Source: Cordylochernes scorpioides (taxonomy: Eukaryota > Arthropoda > Arachnida > Pseudoscorpiones > Chernetidae). From it: 64,000 bases of DNA. How positions within the stretch are numbered: the first letter of the stretch is position 1; every line of letters begins with the position of its first letter. The notes beneath the pieces were generated by a model that saw only the letters and a program-made list of their open reading frames with translations, did no database searches and had not been told where the DNA came from. The stretch is from contig CP092872.1 of NCBI GenBank assembly GCA_030710605.1, positions 92,840,627 to 92,904,626 on the forward strand, written 5' to 3'. The position numbers and the translations under genes are program-made. Shown here piece after piece: positions 1,339 to 57,362 of the stretch.

Positions 1339-2657
<1,319 letters not shown>

Positions 2658-2776
2658 TATATGCTCTCTTGTTAGATATGAATAAAGATAAACAACGTCT
2701 GAGCATACCAACTAAACAGATATTTCAAGTTGCGAATATCAGAGAAAATTTCATTTATAAAAATAAAGATATCACC

Positions 2777-3014
2777 TCTCCCGTCAAAATAGACGCTAAA
2801 ACTAAGCGCCATCTATTAACCGTCGCCGAAAACTAACTGACTCAAGTCGGTGACAAAGCCACAACACCAGCTTTGACAAACTGAGAAGAGCTCACCTGGA
2901 GACCTTAGTTTCGGGCTAATTGTCCTCGTCGGCTTTGTCACCGACCGAATCCGCTAGTTTGTGGAGACGGTCAATAGATGGCGCTTAGTTTTAGCGTCTA
3001 TTTTGACGGGAGAG
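2777..3014. repeat. Foldback element, family F
   Basis: A near-palindrome. The left arm begins CTCTCCCGTCAAAATAGACG and returns inverted as the right arm ending near 3014. The arms are about 85-90 bp around a loop of roughly 65 bp. Both arms carry the 9-mer AGATGGCGC (2806-2814 as complement, 2976-2984 direct). Related truncated copies lie at 14614-14772 and 40237-40331. It has no coding capacity and is probably a non-autonomous element. Confidence 0.85.
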
Positions 3015-3067
3015 ACGAGCTTTATTTTTTTTAGATCAATTTTCTTCCGGAAAACTTTCTATTTTTT

Positions 3068-9425: not shown

Positions 9426-9630
9426 TGTTGAAAAGTGACTCGCACCTCGGCTGTCGCTTAGCAACGGCCACTTCCCCCAGACATTACGTAACTGTATATA
9501 GGTTTCAGATTTGCTTGCTTGTTGACTGCCACCGCTTACCTCTTTTAACTCTCTATTGTTTGTCATCTAAATATAATCTTTTGATAATTAAACATACTTT
9601 CTGAGATCCAACCTCTGTTTTATTCTTACA
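9426..9630 (+). repeat. Copia 5' LTR (205 bp)
   Basis: TGTTGAAAAG...TTCTTACA. It contains a TATA-like TGTATATAGG near 9493, which would sit in U3 and drive the genomic transcript. Same length as the 3' LTR, with no difference seen by eye. Confidence 0.96.
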
Positions 9631-9650
9631 TGGCAGCAGAGCTTGGTTGG
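9631..9650 (+). promoter_or_regulatory. Copia primer binding site
   Basis: TGGCAGCAGAGCTTGGTTGG follows the 5' LTR directly. It starts with TGG, the complement of a tRNA CCA end, and resembles binding sites for initiator-Met tRNA used by many retroelements. The tRNA assignment is from memory of the family and needs a search. Confidence 0.7.
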
Positions 9651-9700
9651 TATCAAATATTTTTTGTTTATCTAAGCTGAAATTCGTTTGCTTGCTCAAG

Positions 9701-12700
9701 ATGACAACTGAACTTCCACAAATTCAAAAATTCAACGGCGATAATTTTCATCTATGGAAATTTCAAATGAAGATTATTCTAGAAGCAAAAGATCTTCTCA
9801 GTATAACTGATGGCTCTGAGGTAAAACCTGAAATAGAGGATATTGCAAAATTCTCTAACTGGAAAAAGAAAGATGCAAAATCCAAAATGCTGATCACTAC
9901 TGCTCTAGAGTTTAAATATCTTCAACAGATTGTTAATTGCCAGACTTCAGCAGAAATGTGGAAGAAATTATCAACAATATATGAACTGAAATCTGAAACA
10001 AACAAATATTTGCTGCAACAAAGATTTTTCGAATATAAAATGAATCCAAATGATAACATTGCTACTCATATTTCCAAAGTTGAAACTCTGGCACAACAAA
10101 TGAAAGATCTAGGTGAGCCAATCTCTGATGTTGCCCTAATTACAAAGATAATTTGCAGCTTGCCTGATAAATACAAGAATTTCATAACAGCATGGGATTC
10201 AGTTTCATCAGAAGAAAAGACACTAGAAAACTTGACGGCAAGATTACTGAAAGAAGAAAGCTTACAGGATCATTGGGATTCTTCAGGAAATTCTAAACCA
10301 GATAATGCCTTGATGACTTTTTCAAAGTTCAACAGAAATTCAACAGCTTCCAACAAACAACAGCAGCATCAACAATCCATTAAAGATAAAAAGAAGAACA
10401 CACACTGTGGATATTGCAAGAAGAAAGGACATTGGTGGAAAGAATGCTATAAAAGAAAGGAAGAACAAAAAGGACAACAGCCAAGTTCTTCATCCAGAGA
10501 TGATAGCTGTGCTTTTTCAGCTGAGACAAGTGCCTTCCTCGCTGAAACAAAGGATTCCTGGATTGCAGATTCTGGAGCAACGGATCACATGACTTTCAGA
10601 AGAGAATGGTTCTCTACGTTCGAAGAAATACCAGAAGGTGTTCATCCTGTGTGCCTTGGAGATGGAAAGCAGATCTATGCAAAAGGTAAGGGAAATATTG
10701 ATATTCTCTCTTATGTTGATAGTCAGAAAATTAATGCAACTCTTTTGGATGTTCTCTATGTACCTGAATTGGAGACTAATCTTTTCTCAATATCTACTGC
10801 AACAAAACATGGTTTGACGCTCATTTGTAAAGGAAATCAGATAAAATTGACTAAAAATTCGAAAGTGCTAGTTACTGGAATAAAGGACAATTCAAATCTT
10901 TATAGAATTTTTATTAAAGCAAAGCAATCTTCACAAACTCATGTTGCTCAGTTAAGTCTAGATATATGGCATCAAAGAATGGGTCATGTAAATCCTATAA
11001 AATTAACCCAAATGTTTGAAAATAATGTTTTTGAAGACGACATTAAAATTAGAGAAAAGCCTGATTCTTTACTATGTGAAGCATGCATCTATGGAAAACA
11101 AAATAGAAAGGTTTTTCACGCGTCAACAAGTCCAAATTCGACCTATCCAGGAGAGCTGATCTATTCAGATGTTTGTGGACCAATGAGTAAAAGATCACCA
11201 GGTGGATCATTATATTTTGTATCATTCAAGGATGATTTTTCAAGATTTAGAGTGGCCTATTTCATTAGGCATAAATCAGATGTTCTTGAGAAATTTAAAG
11301 AATTTGTAAAAAGGGTTAGGACTGAAACTGGAAATAAAATAAAAAGATTCAGAACAGATTATGGCACAGAATTCTTAAATAAGAATTTTTCTGATTATCT
11401 AAAATCTCTAGGAATTGTTCATGAACTCACTGCTCCATATACCCCAGAACAGAATGGAATTGCTAAAAGAGATAACAGAACAATAGTTGAATCAGCTAAA
11501 TGCATGTTACATGGAAGAAAAATGCCGCTTGAACTGTGGGCTGAAGCCGTAAACACAGCAGTCTATCTCTTAAATAGATGTACTACTAATGTATTGGGAA
11601 ATTCTACACCTTATGAAATATGGTACAAGAGAAAACCCTCCATCTTACATTTGAAAAATTTTGGATGTAACGCTTATGTGCATATACCAAAAGATAACAG
11701 AAAGAAATTAGACAAAAAGAGTATTCGTACATTTTTTGTTGGATATACTGAAACTAACAAAAATTATAGAATGTGGGATCCTATTGCTAGAAAAATTATC
11801 ATAAGCAGAGATGTAATATTTACTGAAGCTAATACATCAGAAAATATTCAGGATAACCAACAAGAGCAGGTAACTATATACAGTGAAGAAAGTGTTGATA
11901 ACACAAATACCAGTTCCAAACCAGAAGAATCATGTCGATACCCTCTCAGGAATAGAATCAGAGAAAATGAACAAACATCAACCAGCTGTACAAGAGCTAT
12001 TTCATATGCTTGTTATGTCCATGACCAAGAACCATTGAACTATGAAGATGCAATTGTAGGACAAAACTCAAAACAGTGGAAACTAGCTATGGACGATGAA
12101 TTCAATTCCATGATGAAAAATCAAACATGGACGTATGTGACACTACCATCAGACAGAAAAGCTATTGCATGCAAGTGGGTATACAAAATAAAGCAAAATG
12201 CAGATGGATCAAATAAAATGTTTAAGGCTAGACTAGTTGCGAAAGGTTATTCACAAAAACCAGGACTTGATTATGGTGAAACTTTTTCTCCAGTAGTAAA
12301 ATTCGATTCAATTAGAACAATCTTATCACTTTGTGCATAACTTGATATGGAAATGATTCAGTTAGATGTAAAATCTGCCTTCTTGAATGGTGATTTGGAA
12401 GAAGAACTTTACATGGAACAACCCCAAGGTTATGAAAACCCAGATTTTCCAAATCATGTTTGCTCTCTTCAGAAAAGCATCTATGGTCTTAAGCAATCCC
12501 CCAGAATGTGGAACAAGAAATTTCATGAGTTTTTAATTAAGTTTGATCTCAAACCTAGCATATCAGATTCATGTGTCTATACAATGAAATGTAAACAGGC
12601 TTACATATTACTTGCAATATATGTAGATGATTGCTTAATCTGCAGTGTAAATAAACAACATTTAGATGATATAGTACAGTACTTAAATTCCAATTTTGAA

Positions 12701-13264
12701 ATAAAAACTTTTACTGCCGATTATTTCCTTGGCCTACAAATATATCGAGATAGAACAACTAAAATGTTATTTCTGCATCAAGCCTCATACATTGAAAGAA
12801 CACTTGAACATTACAACCTTCTTGATATTAAGTTACAATCTGTACCTTCTGATCCTTACTCAAAACTAACAAAAGAGATGTGCCCAAAGGATGATCAGGA
12901 AATTGAAGAAATGAACAAGATTCCATACAGACAGACAATTGGTAGTTTAATGTACCTCATGACTGGAACTAGACCTGATATTGCCTACGCAGTCAACAGG
13001 GTTAGCCAATTTATGAACAACCCAGGACCTTCACATTGGACCGCAGTAAAGAAAATATTTGGATACTTAAAAGCTACGAAAAACATCGGTATTTGTTTTG
13101 GTGGGAGTTCCTGCACTTCAACCCTGATAGGTTTTTCCGATGCTGATTTTGCTGCAGACATATTTACGAAAGCTCTACCTCCAGAAAGGCATAAAAGACT
13201 AAGGAGCCAACTTGGACTGTTTGAAACAACGGAGTGCTCGTCAGGTGGGAGTGTTGAAAAGTGA
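9701..13264 (+). pseudogene. Copia gag-pol polyprotein, disabled
   Basis: I chose the ATG at 9701 (MTTELPQIQKF) because copia gag proteins begin with this type of motif; an in-frame upstream ATG at 9647 lies beside the primer site. Residues numbered from 9701 are as follows. Gag is UBN2-like. The zinc knuckle C-x2-C-x4-H-x4-C is at 236-249. The protease DSGA begins at Asp290. The integrase zinc region starts WHQRMGH at 423. Integrase core Asp residues are 490 and 553. Reverse transcriptase YVDD is at 12620-12631. Lesions are as follows. The residue 36 after Asp553, where the catalytic Glu of DD35E belongs, is Lys589 (codon AAA, 11465). A TAA at 12338-12340 interrupts reverse transcriptase, with the same frame continuing after it. 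The RNase H domain is deleted in frame: SDADFA joins directly to the C-terminal ADIFTKALP near 13151-13157. It cannot make a complete active polyprotein. Confidence 0.95.
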
Positions 13265-13456: not shown

Positions 13457-13461
13457 GGTTT

Positions 13462-14613: not shown

Positions 14614-14772
14614 CTCTCCCGTCAAAACAATCACTGGCACTAAGCGCCATCTATTAACTGTCTCTACAAACTATCGGACTCGGATCGGTGATACAGTTCC
14701 AACCCCAGTTTTGGTCATTTCTGAGCGTCTAGCTAAGACCGTGGTTTCGGACTTAATAGCCCTCGTCAATCC
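14614..14772. repeat. Family F element, truncated
   Basis: Similar to the left arm and loop of the foldback at 2777-3014 (CTCTCCCGTCAAAA, AAGCGCCATCTATTAACTGT, GACTCGGATCGGTGA). The right arm is missing. Carries one copy of the 9-mer GCGCCATCT (14644). Confidence 0.8.
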
Positions 14773-14829
14773 AGAGTAGACTTTAGATTTCCTGATATCC
14801 TCAAGGGATTCATGATATCTTCAGAATTC

Positions 14830-15190
14830 GCCGAAGAGATGCCTGGCTGGCAAAGTAGCTAATTCTACAAAGTCTTGAGCTGTCTCACCAACCAGCAAAC
14901 CAAGGCTTGAGATTTCACACAAAAAAAATCCAACAAAGGCTTGAGTTGTATCATTAACTAGCAAACCAAGTCTAGAGCTGCTATACCGACTATCCGAAAA
15001 TGGTTTGAATTGTCTCACCAACCATGGAACCAAGGCTAGAATATGTCACACCAACAAACCAACAATGGATTGAGTTGTCATACAAACCAGAAAATCGATC
15101 AACTATTCATCTAACCAATACTATAGTTTTCAACACCAACCATCCAACCAAGACTATCGTTTTCTCCTCACCCATGGAACTGAGGCTAGA
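14830..15190. repeat. Diverged flank of the 15-kb satellite
   Basis: Repeated phrases such as ACCAACCATGGAACCAAGGC and TCTCACCAACC recur irregularly here and again at 15620-16100. They form a complex satellite around the 32-bp array. Confidence 0.7.
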
Positions 15191-17692: not shown

Positions 17693-18570
17693 TGTGATGA
17701 TGAGTTGCTGTCGACTTATCTGTGATGAGATCCTGTCGACTCATGTAATGTAGGTGAGGATTCCAGTAGCTTTTGTAGAGATCCTGTCGACTACTGAAAT
17801 AAAAGTTGAAGTTCTGGTAGCTCTTGTTGTACTGTGTTGACCAAGAGGAACAGTCAGGATGTAGAGTTTTCCAGTACCTCTCTGCACCTTGGAAGACCTT
17901 TAAAAGTTCTCACAAAATACAGGCAGTCGTGGTCGAGGCAGAGTGGAAAAACTTGGGGATATCCACACAAAAAACGAAGACACAGTTGCACTAAGAAAGT
18001 TCCGTAACAGATAAAAGTTGAGCCAGGAGCGAAAGATGGAGACATAGAAGTTTCTTACTCGTCTACATGATAGTTGAGATCGACATAAGGTACGACCGAC
18101 GTGAGCTGACGCTAAGGGTGAACTCAACTCAACTGACTGAACTGTCTGAACTGTCAAGTCCCTGTAAGGTGATGATTTATAGGTTAAAGACGGGGTGACC
18201 TTATGTGACAGGGGCGTTTGAGAAAGGGCGCCTTTACCTGTCCAGGTGTGAGAGGGGTCTCTGCATTCCACCACATGTGACAGTGTGGGTGGCCTGTCGT
18301 GGGAACTGTGAATCTACCTGATTTATGACTCCCATCTTTAGACTCTGTTGTTTTGGCAATTCTATGCTCGATCTCTGCTTTAGCTCAACTATTAAATCTA
18401 TTACAGATTTTATTTATTTATCCACTTTGTACAAATTACATTACATAGGTGATGCAATGACACAGATTAATCATGCGCATAATTATTTATAGATGTGTTT
18501 CTATATACAACATGGCAATCTTGTTATAAGTTATCTACACAATATGAGGTTGTTGGTTCAAATTACCATA
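17693..18570. repeat. LARD-like terminal repeat, left copy (878 bp)
   Basis: Begins TGTGATGATGAGTTGCTGTC. It is GC-richer than its surroundings, with tandem phrases GAGATCCTGTCGACT. Open frames of 63 and 124 codons on the minus strand are preserved only because both copies are alike; they show no recognisable domain. Confidence 0.92.
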
Positions 18571-21500: not shown

Positions 21501-22347
21501 TTTAGTATTATGATGAATGAGAGATTTTAAGAAATAATAATAATGATTTTTTTTTTTTTGTTTTTCAAGTTGTAGATTTGGATAGTACCATTTTAGATAA
21601 ATTTAAGAACGACATGTAAGATTAGTAAAAATGGTAAAAAAGCGTGATGGGCGAAAATTTTTTTTTTTTTTTAGTAAAATTGAGAGTAATAACTTGAAAT
21701 TTATAATCTGATTAAAAATTAAAATAAATTTGATAAATGAGAGTGTGAAAGTTTTAAAAATTGAATAAAAAATGATATAAAAAGGTAAAAATTGAATTTA
21801 AAATGCTTAAAGTCAAAATATAAATACAAAATTTATGGGGAATCAAGTTGTGAAGTTGAGGATGAGGTTAAGGTAGGTTTTTAAAAACTTACAATTTGGA
21901 TGAAAGTTCAGTCAGGAGACTTGGTCTTTGATGGTCGTCCTGTTGTCGGGGAAGTCGCTCCATGTAGATCTTGTAGAAGTTGTAACTTCTGGAAAGTTGT
22001 TTGTCGCTTGTCGTCTTGAGCATTGTCTCGATGATGCCAGGTCGAAGGTGGAACTTGTCACAGGGTTTGGGTACATCGCTGCTCGGTTTCCATGTCTTGT
22101 GGGAAGTTCGGGGCTGTCGTTGGCGCGGTCAGCTTGGCTCCTGACGTTGGCGATCGGTTAGCGGGTATGCGGAAGTCCGTTGGGGCGGCGTTTCTTCCTT
22201 AAATATCTTGGGGAGAGATTGCTTGGACGTTTCGTTGGAATGGTCGGGCTTGTTCCTCCATCTTCGCTCTTTCTCGCTTCCTATCTGAACAGTCTTCTTA
22301 CCTCTTCGTTGTGTCATCCTTCGTTTTGGTCATCCTGTCGGCTTAAA
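18571..22347. other. Interior of LARD-like element, non-coding
   Basis: Mostly AT-rich with no open frame showing a domain. 18865-19010 and 19045-19175 are a diverged direct duplication (GTGCAAAGCGAGGATAT ... GCAATGTTTCAC ... TTTTGTCACAATT). A perfect 5' splice-site consensus CAG/GTAAGT lies at 18630-18638, 60 bp after the left repeat. No primer-binding site complementary to a tRNA CCA end was seen at the repeat boundary. Pyrimidine-rich CTCTTTCTCGCTTCC runs precede the right repeat. Confidence 0.7.
18630..18638 (+). promoter_or_regulatory. Consensus 5' splice site
   Basis: CAGGTAAGT matches the metazoan donor consensus exactly, just inside the left terminal repeat. It could define a short leader exon spliced from a transcript started in that repeat. 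No acceptor was identified. Confidence 0.35.
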
Positions 22348-23225
22348 TGTGATGATGAGTTGCTGTCGACTTATCTGTGATGAGATCCTGTCGACTCATG
22401 TAATGTAGGTGAGGATTCCAGTAGCTTTTGTAGAGATCCTGTCGACTACTGAAATAAAAGTTGAAGTTCTGGTAGCTCTTGTTGTACTGTGTTGACCAAG
22501 AGGAACAGTCAGGATGTAGAGTTTTCCAGTACCTCTCTGCACCTTGGAAGACCTTTAAAAGTTCTCACAAAATACAGGCAGTCGTGGTCGAGGCAGAGTG
22601 GAAAAACTTGGGGATATCCACACAAAAAACGAAGACACAGTTGCACTAAGAAAGTTCCGTAACAGATAAAAGTTGAGCCAGGAGCGAAAGATGGAGACAT
22701 AGAAGTTTCTTACTCGTCTACATGATAGTTGAGATCGACATAAGGTACGACCGACGTGAGCTGACGCTAAGGGTGAACTCAACTCAACTGACTGAACTGT
22801 CTGAACTGTCAAGTCCCTGTAAGGTGATGATTTATAGGTTAAAGACGGGGTGACCTTATGTGACAGGGGCGTTTGAGAAAGGGCGCCTTTACCTGTCCAG
22901 GTGTGAGAGGGGTCTCTGCATTCCACCACATGTGACAGTGTGGGTGGCCTGTCGTGGGAACTGTGAATCTACCTGATTTATGACTCCCATCTTTAGACTC
23001 TGTTGTTTTGGCAATTCTATGCTCGATCTCTGCTTTAGCTCAACTATTAAATCTATTACAGATTTTATTTATTTATCCACTTTGTACAAATTACATTACA
23101 TAGGTGATGCAATGACACAGATTAATCATGCGCATAATTATTTATAGATGTGTTTCTATATACAACATGGCAATCTTGTTATAAGTTATCTACACAATAT
23201 GAGGTTGTTGGTTCAAATTACCATA
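22348..23225. repeat. LARD-like terminal repeat, right copy (878 bp)
   Basis: Same length as the left copy with no indel, and open frames encode identical peptides in both. It is followed by a TA-rich run and then the right part of the interrupted family B element. Confidence 0.92.
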
Positions 23226-26486: not shown

Positions 26487-26657
26487 AAACGCGTTCGTGG
26501 ATGGCTTTTCTTGATTTATCAAGAAATTGGGTTGACCAAATATCAGGGAACAGGTTAAAATCAATGAATAGTTGATTTCTGTTACACCAGATGGCGCTCT
26601 GCCTTCTGAAAAGCACATGTGCTCCTGGTCAGGAGATATGCCTACTTAGTTTTTAAA
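26487..26657 (+). repeat. 5'-truncated relative of the hammerhead-bearing element
   Basis: Starts AAACGCGTTCGTGGATGGCT and follows the 55-kb unit through TTTTCTTGATTTATCAAG, CAGATGGCGCTCTGCC and AGCACATGTGCTCCTGGTCA. Similarity begins about 9 bases before the predicted self-cleavage position of the intact ribozyme (equivalent to 26495/26496). The ribozyme 5' half is absent. Confidence 0.8.
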
Positions 26658-27170
26658 GCTATATATATGTGTGTGGGTTGAAAAAAAATCTCTATAAATG
26701 AAGTGAACTCAGCATAAATGTTCATGTTCTCATTTTACGTGGTTAGGATAACATACATAGAGTCTATCATTCGACAGAAATTTACCCGAAAATTTGTAAA
26801 TATAAAAGCCGGTTATCTTAATAAAGCTGTATGTGTGTGGATTGAAAAAAATCTCTATAAATGAAGTAAAACTAAGCAGAAATGATCGTGTTTTCACCTA
26901 TACACGTACATAACATAACAAACTTACGCGTATTCAAAGAGATAGAAAGCAGAAGAACTCGTTGATGGCAGCAGACAAAGCGATTATGCAAATTGACGTG
27001 TGTGTGTGTGAGTTGAAAAAAAACTCTATAAATGAAGTAAAACTGAGCATAAATGATCATGTTCTCACCTATACATAACATAACAAACTTACGCGTATTC
27101 AAAGAGATAGAAAGCAGAAGAACTCGTTGATGGAAGCAGACAAAGCGATTATGCAAATTGAAGCGCAGAA
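26640..27170. repeat. Tandem segmental duplications (~170 bp)
   Basis: GTGTGTGGATTGAAAAAAAT and CTCTATAAATGAAGTAAAAC, followed by AACTTACGCGTATTCAAAGA and GATTATGCAAATTGA, occur at about 26826-27000 and again at 27001-27165. A partial copy lies at 26660-26735. Confidence 0.85.
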
Positions 27171-29164: not shown

Positions 29165-29860
29165 AAAAGATTAGCATAGCTCCAGTAATGTCATTTCGGC
29201 GGTACAACTACTACAATAGGAAGGATACAGAGAAGATTAGCATGGCCCCTGTGATACTTGTTGGGCGGTACAACTACTACAATAGGAAGGATACAGAGAA
29301 GATTAGCATGGCCCCTGTGATACTTGTTGGGCGGTACAACTACTACAATAGGAAGGATACAGAGAAGATTAGCATGGCCCCTGTGATACTTGTTGGGCGG
29401 TACAACTACTACAATAGGAACTATACAGAGAATATTGGCATGGTCCCTGTCATACCCGTTCGGCGGTACAACTACTACAATAGGAAGGATACAGAGAAGA
29501 TTAGAATGGTCCCTGTGATACTTGTTGGGCGGTACAACTACTACAATAGGAAGGATACAGAGAAGATTAGAATGGTCCCTGTGATACTTGTTGGGCGGTA
29601 CAACTACTACAATAGTAAGGATACAGAGAAGATTAGCATGGCCCCTGTGATACTTGTTGGGCGGTACAACTACTACAATAGGAAGGATACAGAGAAGATT
29701 AGCATGGTCCCTGTTATACCAGTTCGGCGGTACAACTACTACAATAGGAAGGATACAGAGTAGATTAGCATGGCCCCTGTGATACTTGTTGGGCGCTACA
29801 CCTACTACAATTGGAAGGATACAGAGAAGATTAACATAGCCCCTGTGTATTTATTTTCTT
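29165..29860 (+). repeat. 66-bp tandem array derived from U6 snRNA (~10 units)
   Basis: The phrase GGTACAACTACTACAATAGG recurs every 66 bp from 29201 to about 29795. Each unit contains a 28-base stretch (for example 29224-29251, starting GATACAGAGAAGATTAGC and ending TGGCCCCTG) that equals the central domain of U6 snRNA as I know it, including the ACAGAGA box that pairs with the 5' splice site. Upstream in the unit, GTTCGGCGGTACA and CAATAGGAAGG line up with the U6 5' stem-loop and TTGGAAC. The U6 3' stem-loop and terminal U-run are absent. Because 66 is a multiple of three, a 191-codon frame is open across it; that is a by-product. Probably non-functional as snRNA. Confidence 0.88.
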
Positions 29861-40115: not shown

Positions 40116-40236
40116 TAATCACACGCCGCAGTCCTTTATAATGTATTAATGTATTTTTATAATGCATATTTAAAGGGAGAGGTGCATCTCTTGGGACATA
40201 TATAAATGTGAATAAAAATAAAGGTCGCATTTCGCA

Positions 40237-40331
40237 TCAAAATTGACGTCAAAACTAGACGCCATCTATTGACCGTCGCCGCAAACCAGCGGACTCAGGT
40301 CGGTGACAAAGTCAAAGCAACAGTTTTGGAT
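40237..40331. repeat. Family F fragment
   Basis: TTGACGTCAAAACTAGACGC, CATCTATTGACCGTCGCCGC, GACTCAGGTCGGTGACAAAG. The single surviving arm begins with a CRE-like TGACGTCA. Confidence 0.78.
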
Positions 40332-42303: not shown

Positions 42304-42645
42304 AAAATAGTACAAATGTAACATTTTACTGGGATAAGGTGCATAAATTAAGAAAAAGGCATCTCTTTATTGTGCAACTGAAAGTTGCTGATGGCTTGCG
42401 CCATCTATCGGAATAAATATAAACTATTCTCGTTGATTTTTAATTATTCCATAATTGGCCAAATACCCATTCTTGATTAATCAAGAAAAGCTAACCACGG
42501 ACTTTCTTGATTAATCAAGAATGGGTATTTGGCCAATTCTGGAATAATTAAAAATCAACGAGAATAGTTGATATTTATTCCGATAGATGGCGCAAGCCAT
42601 CAGCAACTTTCAGTTGCACGATAAGGAGGTGCCTTTTTCTTAATA
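42304..42645. repeat. Family B foldback, complete
   Basis: Two ~155-bp inverted arms (AAGAAAAAGGCATCTC ... GCGCCATCTATCGG ... TTGGCCAAATACCCATTC) around the loop AAAAGCTAACCACGGACTTT. Both arms carry AGATGGCGC (42398 complement, 42585). Next to the loop is TTCTTGATTAATCAAG, as beside the hammerhead at 55 kb. Confidence 0.92.
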
Positions 42646-52980: not shown

Positions 52981-54000
52981 AAGAAGTTCGTCTGATTTAC
53001 CTGAGCAATTAAAAAAAGAGAACATTTTCATGTTTAAACATAATATGGTGATAGTATCGTTTGATATTTTAACTGGCGATTCTTAACTAATATCCAAATC
53101 AACTTTATCATCATCAACAACAATTAAAACCTTTTATTAAGACATTTTTTCTTACATAGACTGTTGTCCCTGTTATTTAATTAAAGTAAATTAGAAGGAT
53201 GAATCCGTAACCAATTTAACTTTACATATTATTTATTATTAATAGCAATTATACAAAACAAATCTTGGTATATATGTCTACATGAAAACAATAAAAACAA
53301 TAAAACATTATATACATACAAGTTCCTTTTCAAACTCAGTCTCATCTATAGCCATTGTTACTCTGTAATATTCCAACAGTCCCGTAGTCGAAGAAAGAAA
53401 TAAAATATAAATAATGGAACAGAAATCAACTAAATGTTTAATTTAACCTGTTCCTTGATATTTGACCACAACCCATTTTCTTAATAAATCAAATAATTTT
53501 GTGACGAAGAAATATAATTTATATTTATTGTTTAATTTAATTATTCAATGAAAATATTTGGAAACAGATTTATTATTTTATATTTGAAAATCATCATTTA
53601 GTTACCTAGCTTGCTGTAGATAGTTTGGTTAATAAATATCGACTAGTCGTAGTGACGTCATCAATAAATACTTTTACATCTTTCACATCATACAAATACT
53701 TGATTTCTACGCTACAATATATATTGTAGAAATTAATTATACATAATAACAAAACAAATTCTATAAATTAGTTGAAATTGAACAATTATGTAATAATTAT
53801 AATAATTACATATAAACTATAATTACATATGTTTGTACATATGTAAATATGTTTTTCTCAGCAAAGCATCAATTGTAAACACTGAAAATCAATTAAATTA
53901 AAACGAATAAATCCCTAAATTAACATTTCCTATAATAATTATTTCTCTAGCAGATTGTATTTGAAGATAATGACAAAGCGAGCTTCCTTGTTTATTGAAG
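52981..54000. other. AT-rich spacer
   Basis: Nothing recognised. Confidence 0.5.
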
Positions 54001-54385: not shown

Positions 54386-54944
54386 CAATTTAAAAAATTT
54401 CAGTTATAAATATCCACGCTGCGCGCTCATGAAAACAAACTTATTTCCAGAAGCTTGATGTTTTCACCTTAGTTTCTTTTATTCTATAACAAAAATACAT
54501 ATATATATATATATGTCGTGATCGAATGGAAGGGTGCAACCGTTATGGATGCAAGCTTCGAAAAAAATTTGTTCCACACTAATGAGCGCGCGTACGCGGC
54601 GTGCCGTAGCATTCACCCGCGCACGCTGGCTCCCACGTTTATTTTGTACAGTGCATTCATAGATGGATGAATTTGCATTTACATTTTAACACAAGCTTTA
54701 CATATTTACAGTTTAACATACTGATTTTGGCTAAAAGAAACTATAGCTCTTGGGTATTAGGCAAATTATGACATATATATACACATGCAGATTTATTAAG
54801 ACAAAACCGGACTTATACAGATTCACCACAGGAAGGAAACATAGATGGAGTTACTATACTCAAGGAAGCACAGAACCCAACAACAGCCTCCAGGTCCGAC
54901 TCATGTTCAGTGGTTATTCTTTCATATATATATATATATATATA
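54386..54944. other. Spacer with a CpG-rich patch and (TA)n
   Basis: 54580-54640 is unusually GC- and CpG-rich (GCGCGCGTACGCGGCGTGCC, CCCGCGCACGCTGGC) in AT-rich DNA. A (TA)n run lies at about 54923-54946. No gene recognised. Confidence 0.45.
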
Positions 54945-55182
54945 TAGCTTGCTCCGTGATATTTGATCCGTGGTTACAGTCTACTCCACGCTGACGAGCG
55001 CCAACAGCGCGAAACGCGTTCGTGGATGGCTTTTCTTGATTTATCAAGAAATTGGGTTGGCCAAATATCACGGAGCAAGCTAAATATAAACGTTTAGTTT
55101 ATTTTTGCTCCACTAGATGGCGCTCTGCCATCTAAAAAAGCACATATGCTCGTGGTCAGGAGATGCCTTCTTTATTTTTAAT
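54945..55182 (+). mobile_element. Hammerhead-bearing foldback, family B-like
   Basis: A perfect 21-bp inverted repeat (54945-54965 and 55062-55082) encloses a hammerhead ribozyme and TTTTCTTGATTTATCAAG. After the right arm come ACTAGATGGCGCTCTGCC, AGCACATATGCTCGTGGTCA and GGAGATGCC, the 3' part shared with family B and with 26487-26657. Hammerheads in inverted terminal sequence are known from Penelope-like retroelements. No reverse transcriptase is present here, so this would be a non-autonomous or truncated member. Confidence 0.8.
54985..55026 (+). ncRNA. Type I hammerhead ribozyme, minimal stem III
   Basis: All hammerhead core positions are present. Stem I is TCCACG (54985-54990) paired with CGTGGA (55021-55026). 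The core CTGACGA is at 54991-54997. Stem II is GCGC/GCGC around the loop CAACA (54998-55010). GAA is at 55011-55013. Stem III is ACG/CGT (55014-55019), with the required A-U pair next to the cleavage site. The cleavage nucleotide is U55020, so self-cleavage is predicted between 55020 and 55021. The palindromic, loopless stem III (ACGCGT) is unstable in a monomer and suggests activity as a dimer, as described for Penelope-like and retrozyme hammerheads. Confidence 0.85.
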
Positions 55183-55277
55183 ATATATATAACGATATTA
55201 TATTCATATAGCAGAATTTATATAATAGTCATTGTCTGCTATTGGTGCTTTTTTCATCGCTATATGAATACATCGAT
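55183..55277. other. AT-rich spacer
   Basis: Nothing recognised. Confidence 0.35.
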
Positions 55278-56040: not shown

Positions 56041-57362
56041 CGAGGTGTGTTCAGAAAGTATCGCGAATTTTGAATTTTCGCGGGTTACGTATATTCGAAT
56101 TTCGATCTTTTTGTGGCTTTATGTTGGTACTCATGTCTCTCACTTATGCCGACAAGCTCGGCCATTTTGAATGTTCACTTAATTGTTGACAGCTTCTTTG
56201 CTTGCAGGTGTTTTGGATCGTCTTCGATTTTTACCTATTAAAAAAAATGGATCAAAGAACCTGTATCAAATTTTGTGTAAAAAACAAAATTAAGTGCGCG
56301 GATGCATTCCGAATGTTGACTGTGGCATACGGAGAAGCTACCTTGGACCGAAGCAACGTTTATCGGTGGTACAAAATGTTCTCAGAAGGCCGAGAAGATG
56401 TGAACGACGAAGAGCGTACCGGACGCCCGAGCACTTCAACAACAGACGAAAAAATTAATGAAGTGGAAAAATGATATTGGCCAATCGTCGAATCACCGTT
56501 AGAGAAGTTGCTGAGGACCTAAACATATCGATTGGCTCGTGCCATTCGATTTTTATCAATGATTTGGGCATGAGACGGGTCGCCGCGAAATTCGTACCAA
56601 AATTGCTCAATTGCGACCAAAAACAGCATCGCATGAACATTGCTAATGAGATGTTGGACTCTGTCCGCGACGACCCAAATTTGCTCCAGAGGGTCATAAC
56701 TGGTGACGAAGCGTGGGTTTATGGTTATGACGTGGAAACCAAAGCTCAATCATCTCAATGGAAGCTGCCGCACGAACCAAGACCGAAAAAAAGCGCGCCA
56801 AGTTCGGTCGAATGTGAAGGTTTTGCTGACAGTTTTCTTCGATTGCAGGGGCGTGGTGCATCATGAGTTCTTGCCACAGGGTAGAACGGTCAATAAGGAA
56901 TATTACCTGCAAGTTATGCGCAATATGCGCGAAGCAATCCGCCAGAAACTCCCGGATTTGTGGATGAACAAAAATTGGCTTTTGCACCACGATAACGCCC
57001 CTGCTCACACATCGTTGCTTGTGCGCGACTTTTTGGCCAAAAACAACACACTAATGATGCCGCAGCCACCGTATTCGCCAGATCTGGCCCCCTGTGACTT
57101 TTTCTTGTTCCCTAAACTGAAGAGGCTCATGAAAGGACGACGTTACGCTACGCTTGACGAGATAAAGATGGCATCGAAGGAGGAGCTGAAAAAGATTTTT
57201 AAAAATGATTTTTTGAAGTGCTTCGAAGATTGGAAAAACCGTTGGCACAAGTGTATAATATCTCATGGGGATTACTTTGAAGGGGACAAAATAGGTATTC
57301 ATGAATAAATAAATAATTTTTGAAAAAACACAAAAGTCGCGATACTTTTTGAACACACCTCG
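56041..57362 (+). mobile_element. Mariner transposon, copy 2 (1,322 bp)
   Basis: 32-bp inverted ends (CGAGGTGTGTTCAGAAAGTA and TCGCGAATTTTG at the left; right at 57331-57362) with two mismatches. TA target duplication at 56039-56040 and 57363-57364. The ends differ completely from copy 1, so this is a different mariner lineage. Confidence 0.96.
56247..57308 (+). pseudogene. Mariner transposase with two compensating frameshifts
   Basis: Begins [13 protein letters not shown] at 56247, with the N-terminal helix-turn-helix region (RRITVREVAEDL). The triad is complete: TGDEAW, HHDNAPAH, and YSPDLAPCDFF with 34 residues between the last two Asp. One A is missing in the run at 56467-56471 (five A), so the frame stops at 56472. 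One extra A in the run at 56786-56792 (seven A) restores the original frame, which ends at the stop at 57306-57308. The total matches the family at about 353 residues. No internal nonsense codons are seen apart from the shift effects. Inactive as read, unless the runs are sequencing errors. Confidence 0.95.

What the first reader, a model, noticed from the sequence alone, without database searches (positions are those of the whole stretch)
54985..55026. Complete hammerhead ribozyme at the junction of two inverted arms
Every conserved hammerhead position is seen: CUGANGA, GAA, the G-C pair at the base of stem II, the A-U pair at stem III, U as cleavage nucleotide, a 6-bp stem I and a 4-bp stem II. 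Stem III is only ACG/CGU with no loop, a palindrome that needs a dimer to cleave well. Established knowledge: Penelope-like retroelements and retrozymes carry hammerheads with very short stem III. The surrounding 21-bp perfect inverted repeat and shared 3' part with family B suggest that a whole foldback family here descends from a ribozyme-bearing retroelement.
Basis: partly seen in the sequence, partly recalled or inferred. Interest (0 to 1): 0.82.

Follow-up and report, generated by a model that had tools for sequence, protein, structure and literature searches.

The report
Ribozyme retroelement copied by Penelope-type machinery
The window holds one copy of a small self-cutting-RNA mobile element present tens of thousands of times in this large eukaryotic genome, and the way its copies end and sit back-to-back suggests that they were inserted by the enzyme of another element, a Penelope-like retrotransposon.

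Summary
The hammerhead at 54985-55026 is real. A covariance model built from six divergent relatives in the same genome scores it 62 bits, E 6e-16, although Rfam's own cut-off is not reached. Its 36-nt core recurs at 27,162 places with up to 3 mismatches; the reversed control gives 0. It belongs to a 350-bp non-coding, tandem-forming element, a "retrozyme", with a canonical type I hammerhead and a palindromic stem III (ACGCGT). The inverted arms are not terminal repeats: copies often insert as head-to-head pairs, and the left arm here is a 25-nt stub of such a partner.

All 50 fetched copies at least 93% identical to the unit end at one of two internal positions, U157-162 or U204-208. In 17 of 17 classifiable head-to-head pairs one copy has the short and the other the long end. 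A Penelope-like element (PLE) of this genome does the same in 12 of 13 pairs, the 13th unresolved. This is the published PLE "tail" signature. Nearly all copies reaching the ribozyme cut read through it. So this looks like a retrozyme mobilised by PLE machinery, a link proposed in print but not found shown in my searches.

The parts
54970..55184 (+). Retrozyme copy (family A): unit positions U300-350 then U1-161, numbered from the hammerhead cut; 5' truncated, 3' end at the short site (U161)
   Evidence: BLAST to the 350-bp array unit: 100% over U300-350, 96.3% over U1-161
54985..54990 (+). Hammerhead stem I, 5' strand TCCACG
   Evidence: pairs with 55021-55026; double changes on 13 distinct hammerheads
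54978..54981 (+). Outer stem I, 5' strand AGTC; internal loop TAC 54982-54984 follows
   Evidence: sequence; HH9 alignment and folds
54991..54997 (+). Catalytic core CTGACGA
   Evidence: sequence; model R1 alignment
54998..55010 (+). Stem II GCGC/GCGC with loop CAACA
55011..55013 (+). Catalytic core GAA
55014..55019 (+). Stem III, palindrome ACGCGT
   Evidence: other families here also have palindromes (ACCATGGT, ACGT)
55020..55021 (+). Predicted self-cleavage junction (T55020 ^ C55021)
   Evidence: position implied by the hammerhead model; not assayed
55021..55026 (+). Stem I, 3' strand CGTGGA; outer strand GGCT 55028-55031 after bulged T55027
55152..55160 (+). 5' arm GTGGTCAGG of the proposed RT-initiation hairpin; this copy ends in the loop before the 3' arm
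   Evidence: sequence; hairpin in the full unit U129-137/U167-176
54941..54965 (-). Stub of a head-to-head partner (U66-42 reversed): the 'left inverted arm'; its outer end is at neither usual site
   Evidence: 96%, E 2.7e-5
54966..54969 (.). ATCC, 4 nt at the head-to-head junction matching neither arm
54924..54945 (.). (TA)n target on the left side
55182..55191 (.). (TA)n target on the right side
26496..26656 (+). Older family A copy (84%); the 9 nt before it (AAACGCGTT) are unit sequence, so it runs past the cut site
42398..42499 (-). Old family A-related piece (72%)
53412..53492 (-). Old family A piece (80%)
2775..3023 (.). Old head-to-head pair of the second retrozyme family (B), 82-83%
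14645..14853 (-). Old family B copy (73%) with a decayed hammerhead (14729-14778, 22 bits)
40212..40329 (-). Old family B piece (81%)

Best explanation
It is one copy of a non-autonomous, non-coding 350-nt retrozyme. Model: tandem copies or circles supply multimeric RNA; the hammerhead, probably as a dimer through its palindromic stem III, cuts multimers into 350-nt units that are closed into circles (inferred). The RNA carries a hairpin (U129-137/U167-176) that presents two reverse-transcription start sites, one in the hairpin loop (about U161) and one past the hairpin (U204-208). A Penelope-type RT/GIY-YIG protein supplied in trans cuts both strands of an AT-rich target, often (TA)n. It primes one strand at the short site and the other at the long site, and copies backwards through the ribozyme, sometimes several times round. 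The two cDNAs are joined in the middle, giving a head-to-head foldback; when only one strand is copied, a single 5'-truncated copy results. Shown here: the ribozyme motif, copy number, unit length, the two alternative ends, the one-short-one-long rule, head-to-head polarity, read-through of the cut site, and the same signature in a coding PLE of this genome. Inferred: cleavage, circularisation, which protein acts, and its use of both strands.
For: Copies: 27,162 cores; array of 13.4 head-to-tail 350-bp units; among the first 100 places, 15 of 16 same-strand neighbours <400 nt are 349-352 nt apart (recount). Ends: 50 of 50 fetched copies >=93% identical end at U157-162 (26) or U204-208 (24); 17 of 17 classifiable head-to-head pairs are short+long (19 tagged, 2 in L019 dropped, see Tried and rejected). 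Polarity of opposite-strand neighbours <1 kb in the listed first 100 places: family A 12 head-to-head, 0 tail-to-tail; family B 10 and 0; PLE 21 and 0 (recount). PLE with the same rule: 12 of 13 pairs. PLE ORF with RT plus C-terminal GIY-YIG. Duplicated targets: retrozyme ACCTCTG and ACGTAATA; PLE AAGAATATTAG and TATAATGGAT. Read-through: 26,049 -> 23,803 -> 21,226 -> 19,458 as the pattern is lengthened by 4 nt three times across the cut; loss across the cut 10.8%, beside it 8.6% and 8.3%. Hammerhead helices: 21 double-change cells, 0 of 500 shuffles. Unit folds at z -9.5 linear, -9.6 circular. Published PLE features: two adjacent internal RT start sites, both strands cut and extended, AT-rich target (PMC11167929, parts 1-2 of 4); tail on one of the inverted pLTRs (PMC3846280, passages).
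Against: No transcript, circle or cleavage data. The window's own inverted stub ends at U62-66, at neither start site, so this locus does not itself show the rule. No PLE sharing the retrozyme's hairpin sequence was found among the fetched loci scanned; only the architecture is shared. The hairpin alone is only mildly more stable than shuffles (z -1.96, 7 of 200 as good). The PLE loci were picked, many of them, because their GIY-YIG matches lay head-to-head. In 'short' means only that the tail is absent; in L040 the short end lies some 15 nt before the usual one. The Anolis PLE showed no difference in start site between the two strands in vitro. Retrozyme target duplications are legible at only a few non-TA sites. 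Of 24 fetched copies below 93% identity several end elsewhere. One old copy (L058) starts exactly at the cut site, so some linear templates may be used. The two-strand fold of family A is not predicted to be the double hammerhead.
Confidence: 0.8

Rival explanations
1. It is a solo pseudo-LTR or truncated end of a coding Penelope element, not an independent element.
For: PLE pseudo-LTRs also carry a hammerhead followed by an RT-start hairpin and a tail, and sit head-to-head.
Against: The unit forms exact 350-bp tandems with no long open frame between ribozymes. The hammerhead is of the canonical, not minimal, type. The coding PLE family C has a different pseudo-LTR; unit-like sequence in the fetched PLE loci was found only as separate insertions.
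Confidence: 0.08
2. A foldback or MITE-type DNA transposon that picked up a ribozyme; the inverted arms are its terminal inverted repeats.
For: Inverted arms flank the ribozyme in the window and inverted pairs are common.
Against: In the 17 classifiable pairs the outer ends are unequal, one short and one long. Inner junctions vary from copy to copy. Other copies have no inverted partner, and tandems occur.
Confidence: 0.03
3. The same retrozyme, but moved by a LINE-type (not Penelope) reverse transcriptase.
For: Twin priming by LINEs also gives inverted structures (recalled); LINEs are named beside PLEs as possible helpers (PMC7229834 discussion).
Against: LINE twin priming gives one inverted 5' piece, not two outward 3' ends from two fixed internal sites (recalled). 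Internal initiation at two adjacent sites is described as a PLE feature not seen in other retrotransposons (PMC11167929).
Confidence: 0.07
4. Ordinary satellite DNA spread by recombination; the ribozyme is a relic.
For: Nearly perfect 13-unit array in L009.
Against: Tens of thousands of places with the core, two recurrent ends, TA-rich sites, some target duplications, and double changes in the ribozyme helices.
Confidence: 0.02

Closest known systems
Metazoan non-LTR retrozymes (Cervera and de la Pena 2020, PMC7229834)
   Same: Type I hammerhead, short tandem units (150-450 bp stated there), GC below 50%, strongly self-paired unit, high copy number, PLEs in the same genome; weak helix III as in the axolotl elements
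   Different: Here many copies are singles or head-to-head pairs with two alternative 3' ends; the sections I read (outline, results parts 1-2 of 3, discussion) do not describe such ends
Penelope-like elements with minimal hammerheads (family C here; Anolis PLE, PMC11167929; Adineta PLEs, PMC3846280)
   Same: Order hammerhead, RT-start hairpin, optional tail (family C, Anolis); head-to-head inverted copies; tail on one of the inverted ends; AT-rich targets
   Different: PLEs code for RT plus GIY-YIG and have a minimal hammerhead; this element codes for nothing and has a canonical hammerhead
Newt/axolotl hammerhead repeats (HHR_Amex1, PMC7229834)
   Same: About 330-350 bp unit; very weak helix III with a palindromic tetraloop; reported there as more active as dimers
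   Different: Not compared by sequence here; no assay here
Rfam Hammerhead_HH9 (RF02275)
   Same: Same helix layout including a stem I internal loop and a CCAA-type loop II; best hammerhead match in Rfam
   Different: 24.4 bits against a gathering score of 52; HH9 has a longer, looped stem III

Membership tests
Hammerhead ribozyme, type I | CUGANGA and GAA cores, three helices, A-U at stem III, H at the cut site | tested here: met
   Sequence; model from divergent relatives 62 bits
Hammerhead ribozyme, type I | Helices kept by compensatory change | tested here: met
   5 of 12 pairs and 21 cells with double changes, 99.4% of cells paired, slid controls at most 41.7%; 0/500 shuffles for cells and score, but 77/500 for number of such pairs and 369/500 for pair types; sequences were found by a motif that asks for helices
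Hammerhead ribozyme, type I | Score over Rfam's gathering cut-off | tested here: not met
   HH9 24.4 of 52 bits; no hammerhead at gathering threshold
Hammerhead ribozyme, type I | Self-cleavage | not testable with these tools
   needs an in vitro assay
Metazoan non-LTR retrozyme | Type I hammerhead in short (150-450 bp) tandem repeats | tested here: met
   13.4 x 350 bp; spacing 349-352 in 15 of 16
Metazoan non-LTR retrozyme | No coding capacity, GC <50% | tested here: met
   GC 40%; longest stop-to-stop frame 68 aa
Metazoan non-LTR retrozyme | No LTR, primer-binding site or polypurine tract | tested here: inconclusive
   Arrangements in the fetched loci show no LTR layout; PBS/PPT not searched for
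Metazoan non-LTR retrozyme | Target duplications longer than 4 bp, when present | tested here: met
   7-8 bp at L013 168-306 and L020; many sites are TA-rich and unreadable
Metazoan non-LTR retrozyme | Host is an animal | not tested
   genome G000 is unnamed; not identified
Metazoan non-LTR retrozyme | Circular RNA of unit length in tissue | not testable with these tools
   no RNA data; only indirect read-through of the cut site
Penelope-like element | ORF with RT and GIY-YIG | tested here: not met
   no such ORF in the unit; met by the separate family C, L051
Penelope-like element | Optional tail on one of two inverted ends | tested here: met
   17 of 17 classifiable retrozyme pairs; 12 of 13 PLE pairs. 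It inserts like a PLE without being a PLE
MITE / foldback DNA transposon | Constant terminal inverted repeats | tested here: not met
   outer ends differ within pairs

The most novel reading that the evidence does not exclude
Animal-type retrozymes are parasites of Penelope machinery that carry its whole initiation device. Each paired insertion is a coupled, asymmetric event: one target strand is primed at the loop site and the other at the downstream site of one (circular) RNA hairpin. The foldback is then the direct product of a two-headed Penelope complex, and the hammerhead's role is to produce the circle that lets both cDNAs run round the template.
Probability: 0.45. Interest if true: 0.78.

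Novelty: new member of a known kind. Interest (0 to 1): 0.6.

Why it matters
Who moves animal retrozymes is an open question; PLEs were named as likely helpers because both carry type I hammerheads, occur in tandem and co-exist (PMC7229834 discussion; PMC7761336 passages). The two-site ends and the one-short-one-long rule give a sequence signature of the helper that can be scored in any assembled genome with retrozymes, and they define the RNA segment (U129-208) to test with a purified PLE protein. Read-through of the ribozyme cut in nearly all copies speaks to the form of the template RNA. With 60,299 pattern matches to the hammerheads of the three families counted, the genome is also a rich natural data set.

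Tried and rejected
MITE/TIR reading: rejected because outer ends differ and inner junctions vary. Solo Penelope pseudo-LTR: rejected because of the coding-free 350-bp tandems and the different hammerhead type. Search for the retrozyme hairpin sequence in loci L029 onward and the window: only retrozyme insertions (families A and B-like) and chance matches. Run-off of linear cleaved RNA as main template: only a slight excess loss at the cut and one copy seen starting exactly there (L058); the window copy at 26496 looked like another but carries 9 nt beyond the cut. The first pair count used a bracket string misplaced in stems I and III; corrected. Explicit dimer energy evaluation failed. A search for the Naiad PLE paper returned nothing. 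Passages of PMC12910113 and PMC8490949 gave nothing used. The host species was not identified.

Rows dropped before counts: L001-L008 (same places as later loci). Two of 19 head-to-head tags, both in L019: in one both copies belong to a divergent family (75-82%), in the other a 98.7% copy lies beside a 69.9% one, read as nesting. The window stub fell under the cut-off used. L014 shows a tail-to-tail neighbour pair 10 nt apart, read as one copy inserted into the end of another. Of 25 distinct motif sequences, one search used 12 retrozyme ones plus one, leaving out the L012 variant with a loop deletion and the PLE and other types. In one search, pair L051 is long-long, but its + ribozyme runs on into an ORF and is not a 3' end; in L047 the automatic pair used an internal + ribozyme, and its real right end (6305) is also long.

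Full report
Check of the observation. The letters at 54985-55026 give every conserved hammerhead position, with stem I TCCACG/CGTGGA, stem II GCGC/GCGC (loop CAACA) and stem III ACG/CGT. Rfam at its curated cut-off finds no hammerhead in the window; at a looser threshold the best hammerhead match is HH9, 24.4 bits against a gathering score of 52, E 5.4e-4 for 301 bases. A motif scan finds it once in the window; in 100 Markov resamplings a loose scan gives 4 motifs and a strict one 0. As a test that does not use the window's own sequence, I built a model from six divergent hammerheads of the same genome (three old A-like, three family B): it scores the window site at 62 bits, E 6e-16, the next window hit being a decayed family B copy at 14729-14778 with 22 bits. 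A stem I internal loop and, beyond it, an outer helix (54978-54981 with 55028-55031) make this a canonical type I hammerhead.

What it is. The genome (2.62 Gb, 24 contigs, unnamed) has the 36-nt core at 13,458 + and 13,704 - places with up to 3 mismatches; the reversed pattern gives 0. Locus L009 carries 13.4 head-to-tail copies of a 350-bp unit, nearly identical. I number this unit U1-U350 from the hammerhead cut. It has 40% GC and no stop-to-stop frame above 68 aa. It folds far better than shuffles, as a linear strand (-123.5 kcal/mol, z -9.5, 100 shuffles) and as a circle (-117.8, z -9.6, 60 shuffles). In the predicted circle, stem I of the hammerhead is the base of one long branched domain. 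The window copy is U300-350 followed by U1-161. Apart from the unproven RNA circle and the unnamed host, these are the stated features of metazoan non-LTR retrozymes (PMC7229834; outline, results parts 1-2 of 3 and discussion read).

Hammerhead helices across families. Thirteen distinct hammerheads (7 family A, 3 older A-like, 3 family B) keep 99.4% of helix cells paired, with 5 of 12 pairs and 21 cells changed on both sides. Against 500 shuffles, 0 reach the observed cells, score and percentage paired, but 77 reach the number of doubly changed pairs and 369 the number of pair types; slid controls pair at most 41.7%. The sequences were found by a motif that asks for helices, so the count leans towards the structure. 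Stem III is a palindrome in each family: ACGCGT (A), ACCATGGT (B), ACGT (the PLE family C), fitting dimer action, as described for axolotl and Penelope hammerheads (PMC7229834 sections; PMC7761336 passages). For family B the predicted two-strand MFE has both stem II helices and an 8-bp palindromic stem III; for family A it does not.

How copies end. Of 74 copies delimited in the fetched loci, 50 are at least 93% identical to the unit, and all 50 have their 3' end at U157-162 (26) or U204-208 (24); of the 24 more diverged ones several end elsewhere. The 5' end is variable. Opposite-strand neighbours lie head-to-head: among the first 100 places, 12 of 12 within 1 kb are - then +; five further pairs in the list agree. 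Of 19 head-to-head tags, two in L019 were dropped (divergent family; nesting). In the remaining 17 of 17 one copy has the short and the other the long end; random assortment would give this with a chance near 0.5^17. Three of these pairs (L013 168-306, L018 934-1152, L026 3101-3227) are partly or wholly diverged copies not selected by the query. At the inner junctions 10 of 17 pairs share 1-17 nt, 3 abut and 4 have 1-16 extra letters (the 16 in L013 are themselves unit sequence). Flanks are often (TA)n; at two non-TA sites 7-8 bp of target are duplicated (L013 168-306, ACCTCTG; L020, ACGTAATA). Several single copies abut (TA)n directly on the 5' side (for instance L015, L052, L053 2756).

The same signature in a Penelope-like element. 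From the GIY-YIG matches I fetched loci, many of them because two matches lay head-to-head. They contain a coding family C; [quoted passage not shown] Its 3' end carries a minimal hammerhead, then a hairpin CTGGCCG...CGGCCAG, ending in the hairpin loop (short) or about 33 nt further on (long, the tail). Of 13 head-to-head pairs 12 are short-long, short meaning that the tail is absent; the 13th (L051) has an internal, not terminal, + ribozyme. Target duplications include AAGAATATTAG (L040) and TATAATGGAT (L045). Its hammerhead pattern occurs at 10,900 places, and 21 of 21 opposite-strand neighbours within 1 kb in the listed hundred are head-to-head. A second retrozyme family (B, spacing 319-320 in 4 of 4 same-strand neighbours) occurs at 22,237 places, 10 of 10 head-to-head in the list.

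Match with published PLE biochemistry. A purified Anolis PLE protein cuts and extends both strands, prefers AT-rich DNA, and starts reverse transcription at two adjacent internal sites that explain the genomic tail; the authors saw no difference in start site between the two strands in vitro (PMC11167929, parts 1-2 of 4). That last point does not support a fixed strand-to-site assignment, though it does not exclude one short and one long end per insertion. [quoted passage not shown] The retrozyme has the same layout, with no sequence similarity that I detected: a hairpin U129-137/U167-176 with the short site in its loop and the long site after it. The hairpin's own stability is modest (z -1.96). 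Diverged retrozyme copies vary in this segment, many keeping GGTCAGG...CCTGA(C/T)C.

What the template looked like. Exact pattern counts from U5, U1, U347 and U343 onwards to U25 are 26,049, 23,803, 21,226 and 19,458, all reversed controls 0. Losses per 4 nt are 8.6%, 10.8% (across the cut) and 8.3%. So only a few per cent of copies that reach the cut appear to stop there; the rest were copied from uncleaved, multimeric or circular RNA. Units inside tandem arrays inflate the read-through somewhat, and the added letters differ in mutability. One old copy (L058 4411-4619) starts exactly at U1.

The window locus itself. Between two (TA)n stretches lie a reversed 25-nt piece (U66-42), four letters ATCC and the + copy. 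The stub's outer end is at neither usual start site, so this locus alone would not reveal the rule.

Novelty. The element is a new member of a known kind. Retrozyme mobilisation by PLEs has been proposed (PMC7229834, PMC7761336). In seven searches of the open-licence library, seen as listings plus the sections and passages cited, I found no report of PLE-type tails or paired ends in retrozymes; subscription papers were not searched.

Noticed in passing
window 29198-29847: Tandem array of 9.8 units of 66 bp whose unit contains the core of U6 snRNA; seven U6 matches at gathering score.
   Followed up: partly
window 2775-3023, 14645-14853, 40212-40329: Old pieces of a second retrozyme family (B), one of them a head-to-head pair.
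   Followed up: partly
window 9605-13264: Two long frames that read as a Ty1/copia-type polyprotein (by eye).
   Followed up: no
window 1686-2423 and 56462-57308: Frames that read as mariner-type transposases (by eye).
   Followed up: no
window 17900-18313 and 22555-22968: Identical 137-aa minus-strand frames 4,655 bp apart, perhaps the two LTRs of one element.
   Followed up: no
window 54928-55099: On the - strand the inverted arms give a weak Rfam match to a microRNA precursor family (MIR2619, 30 bits, gathering 113), read as chance.
   Followed up: no
L043 1248-3734 and 6277-8764; L050 3670-5976: A second type of PLE-like frame with a GIY-YIG-like motif at the N-terminus, before the RT region; GIY-YIG confirmed by Pfam for L043, no Pfam match for L050; head-to-head in L043.
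   Followed up: partly
L009 1316-6001: 13.4 nearly identical 350-bp units: either a very long rolling-circle cDNA or recent DNA amplification.
   Followed up: no
L011 1719-2441: Flanks repeat TATACCGTT on both sides with extra TA-rich letters between it and the element, as if TA repeats were added during insertion.
   Followed up: no
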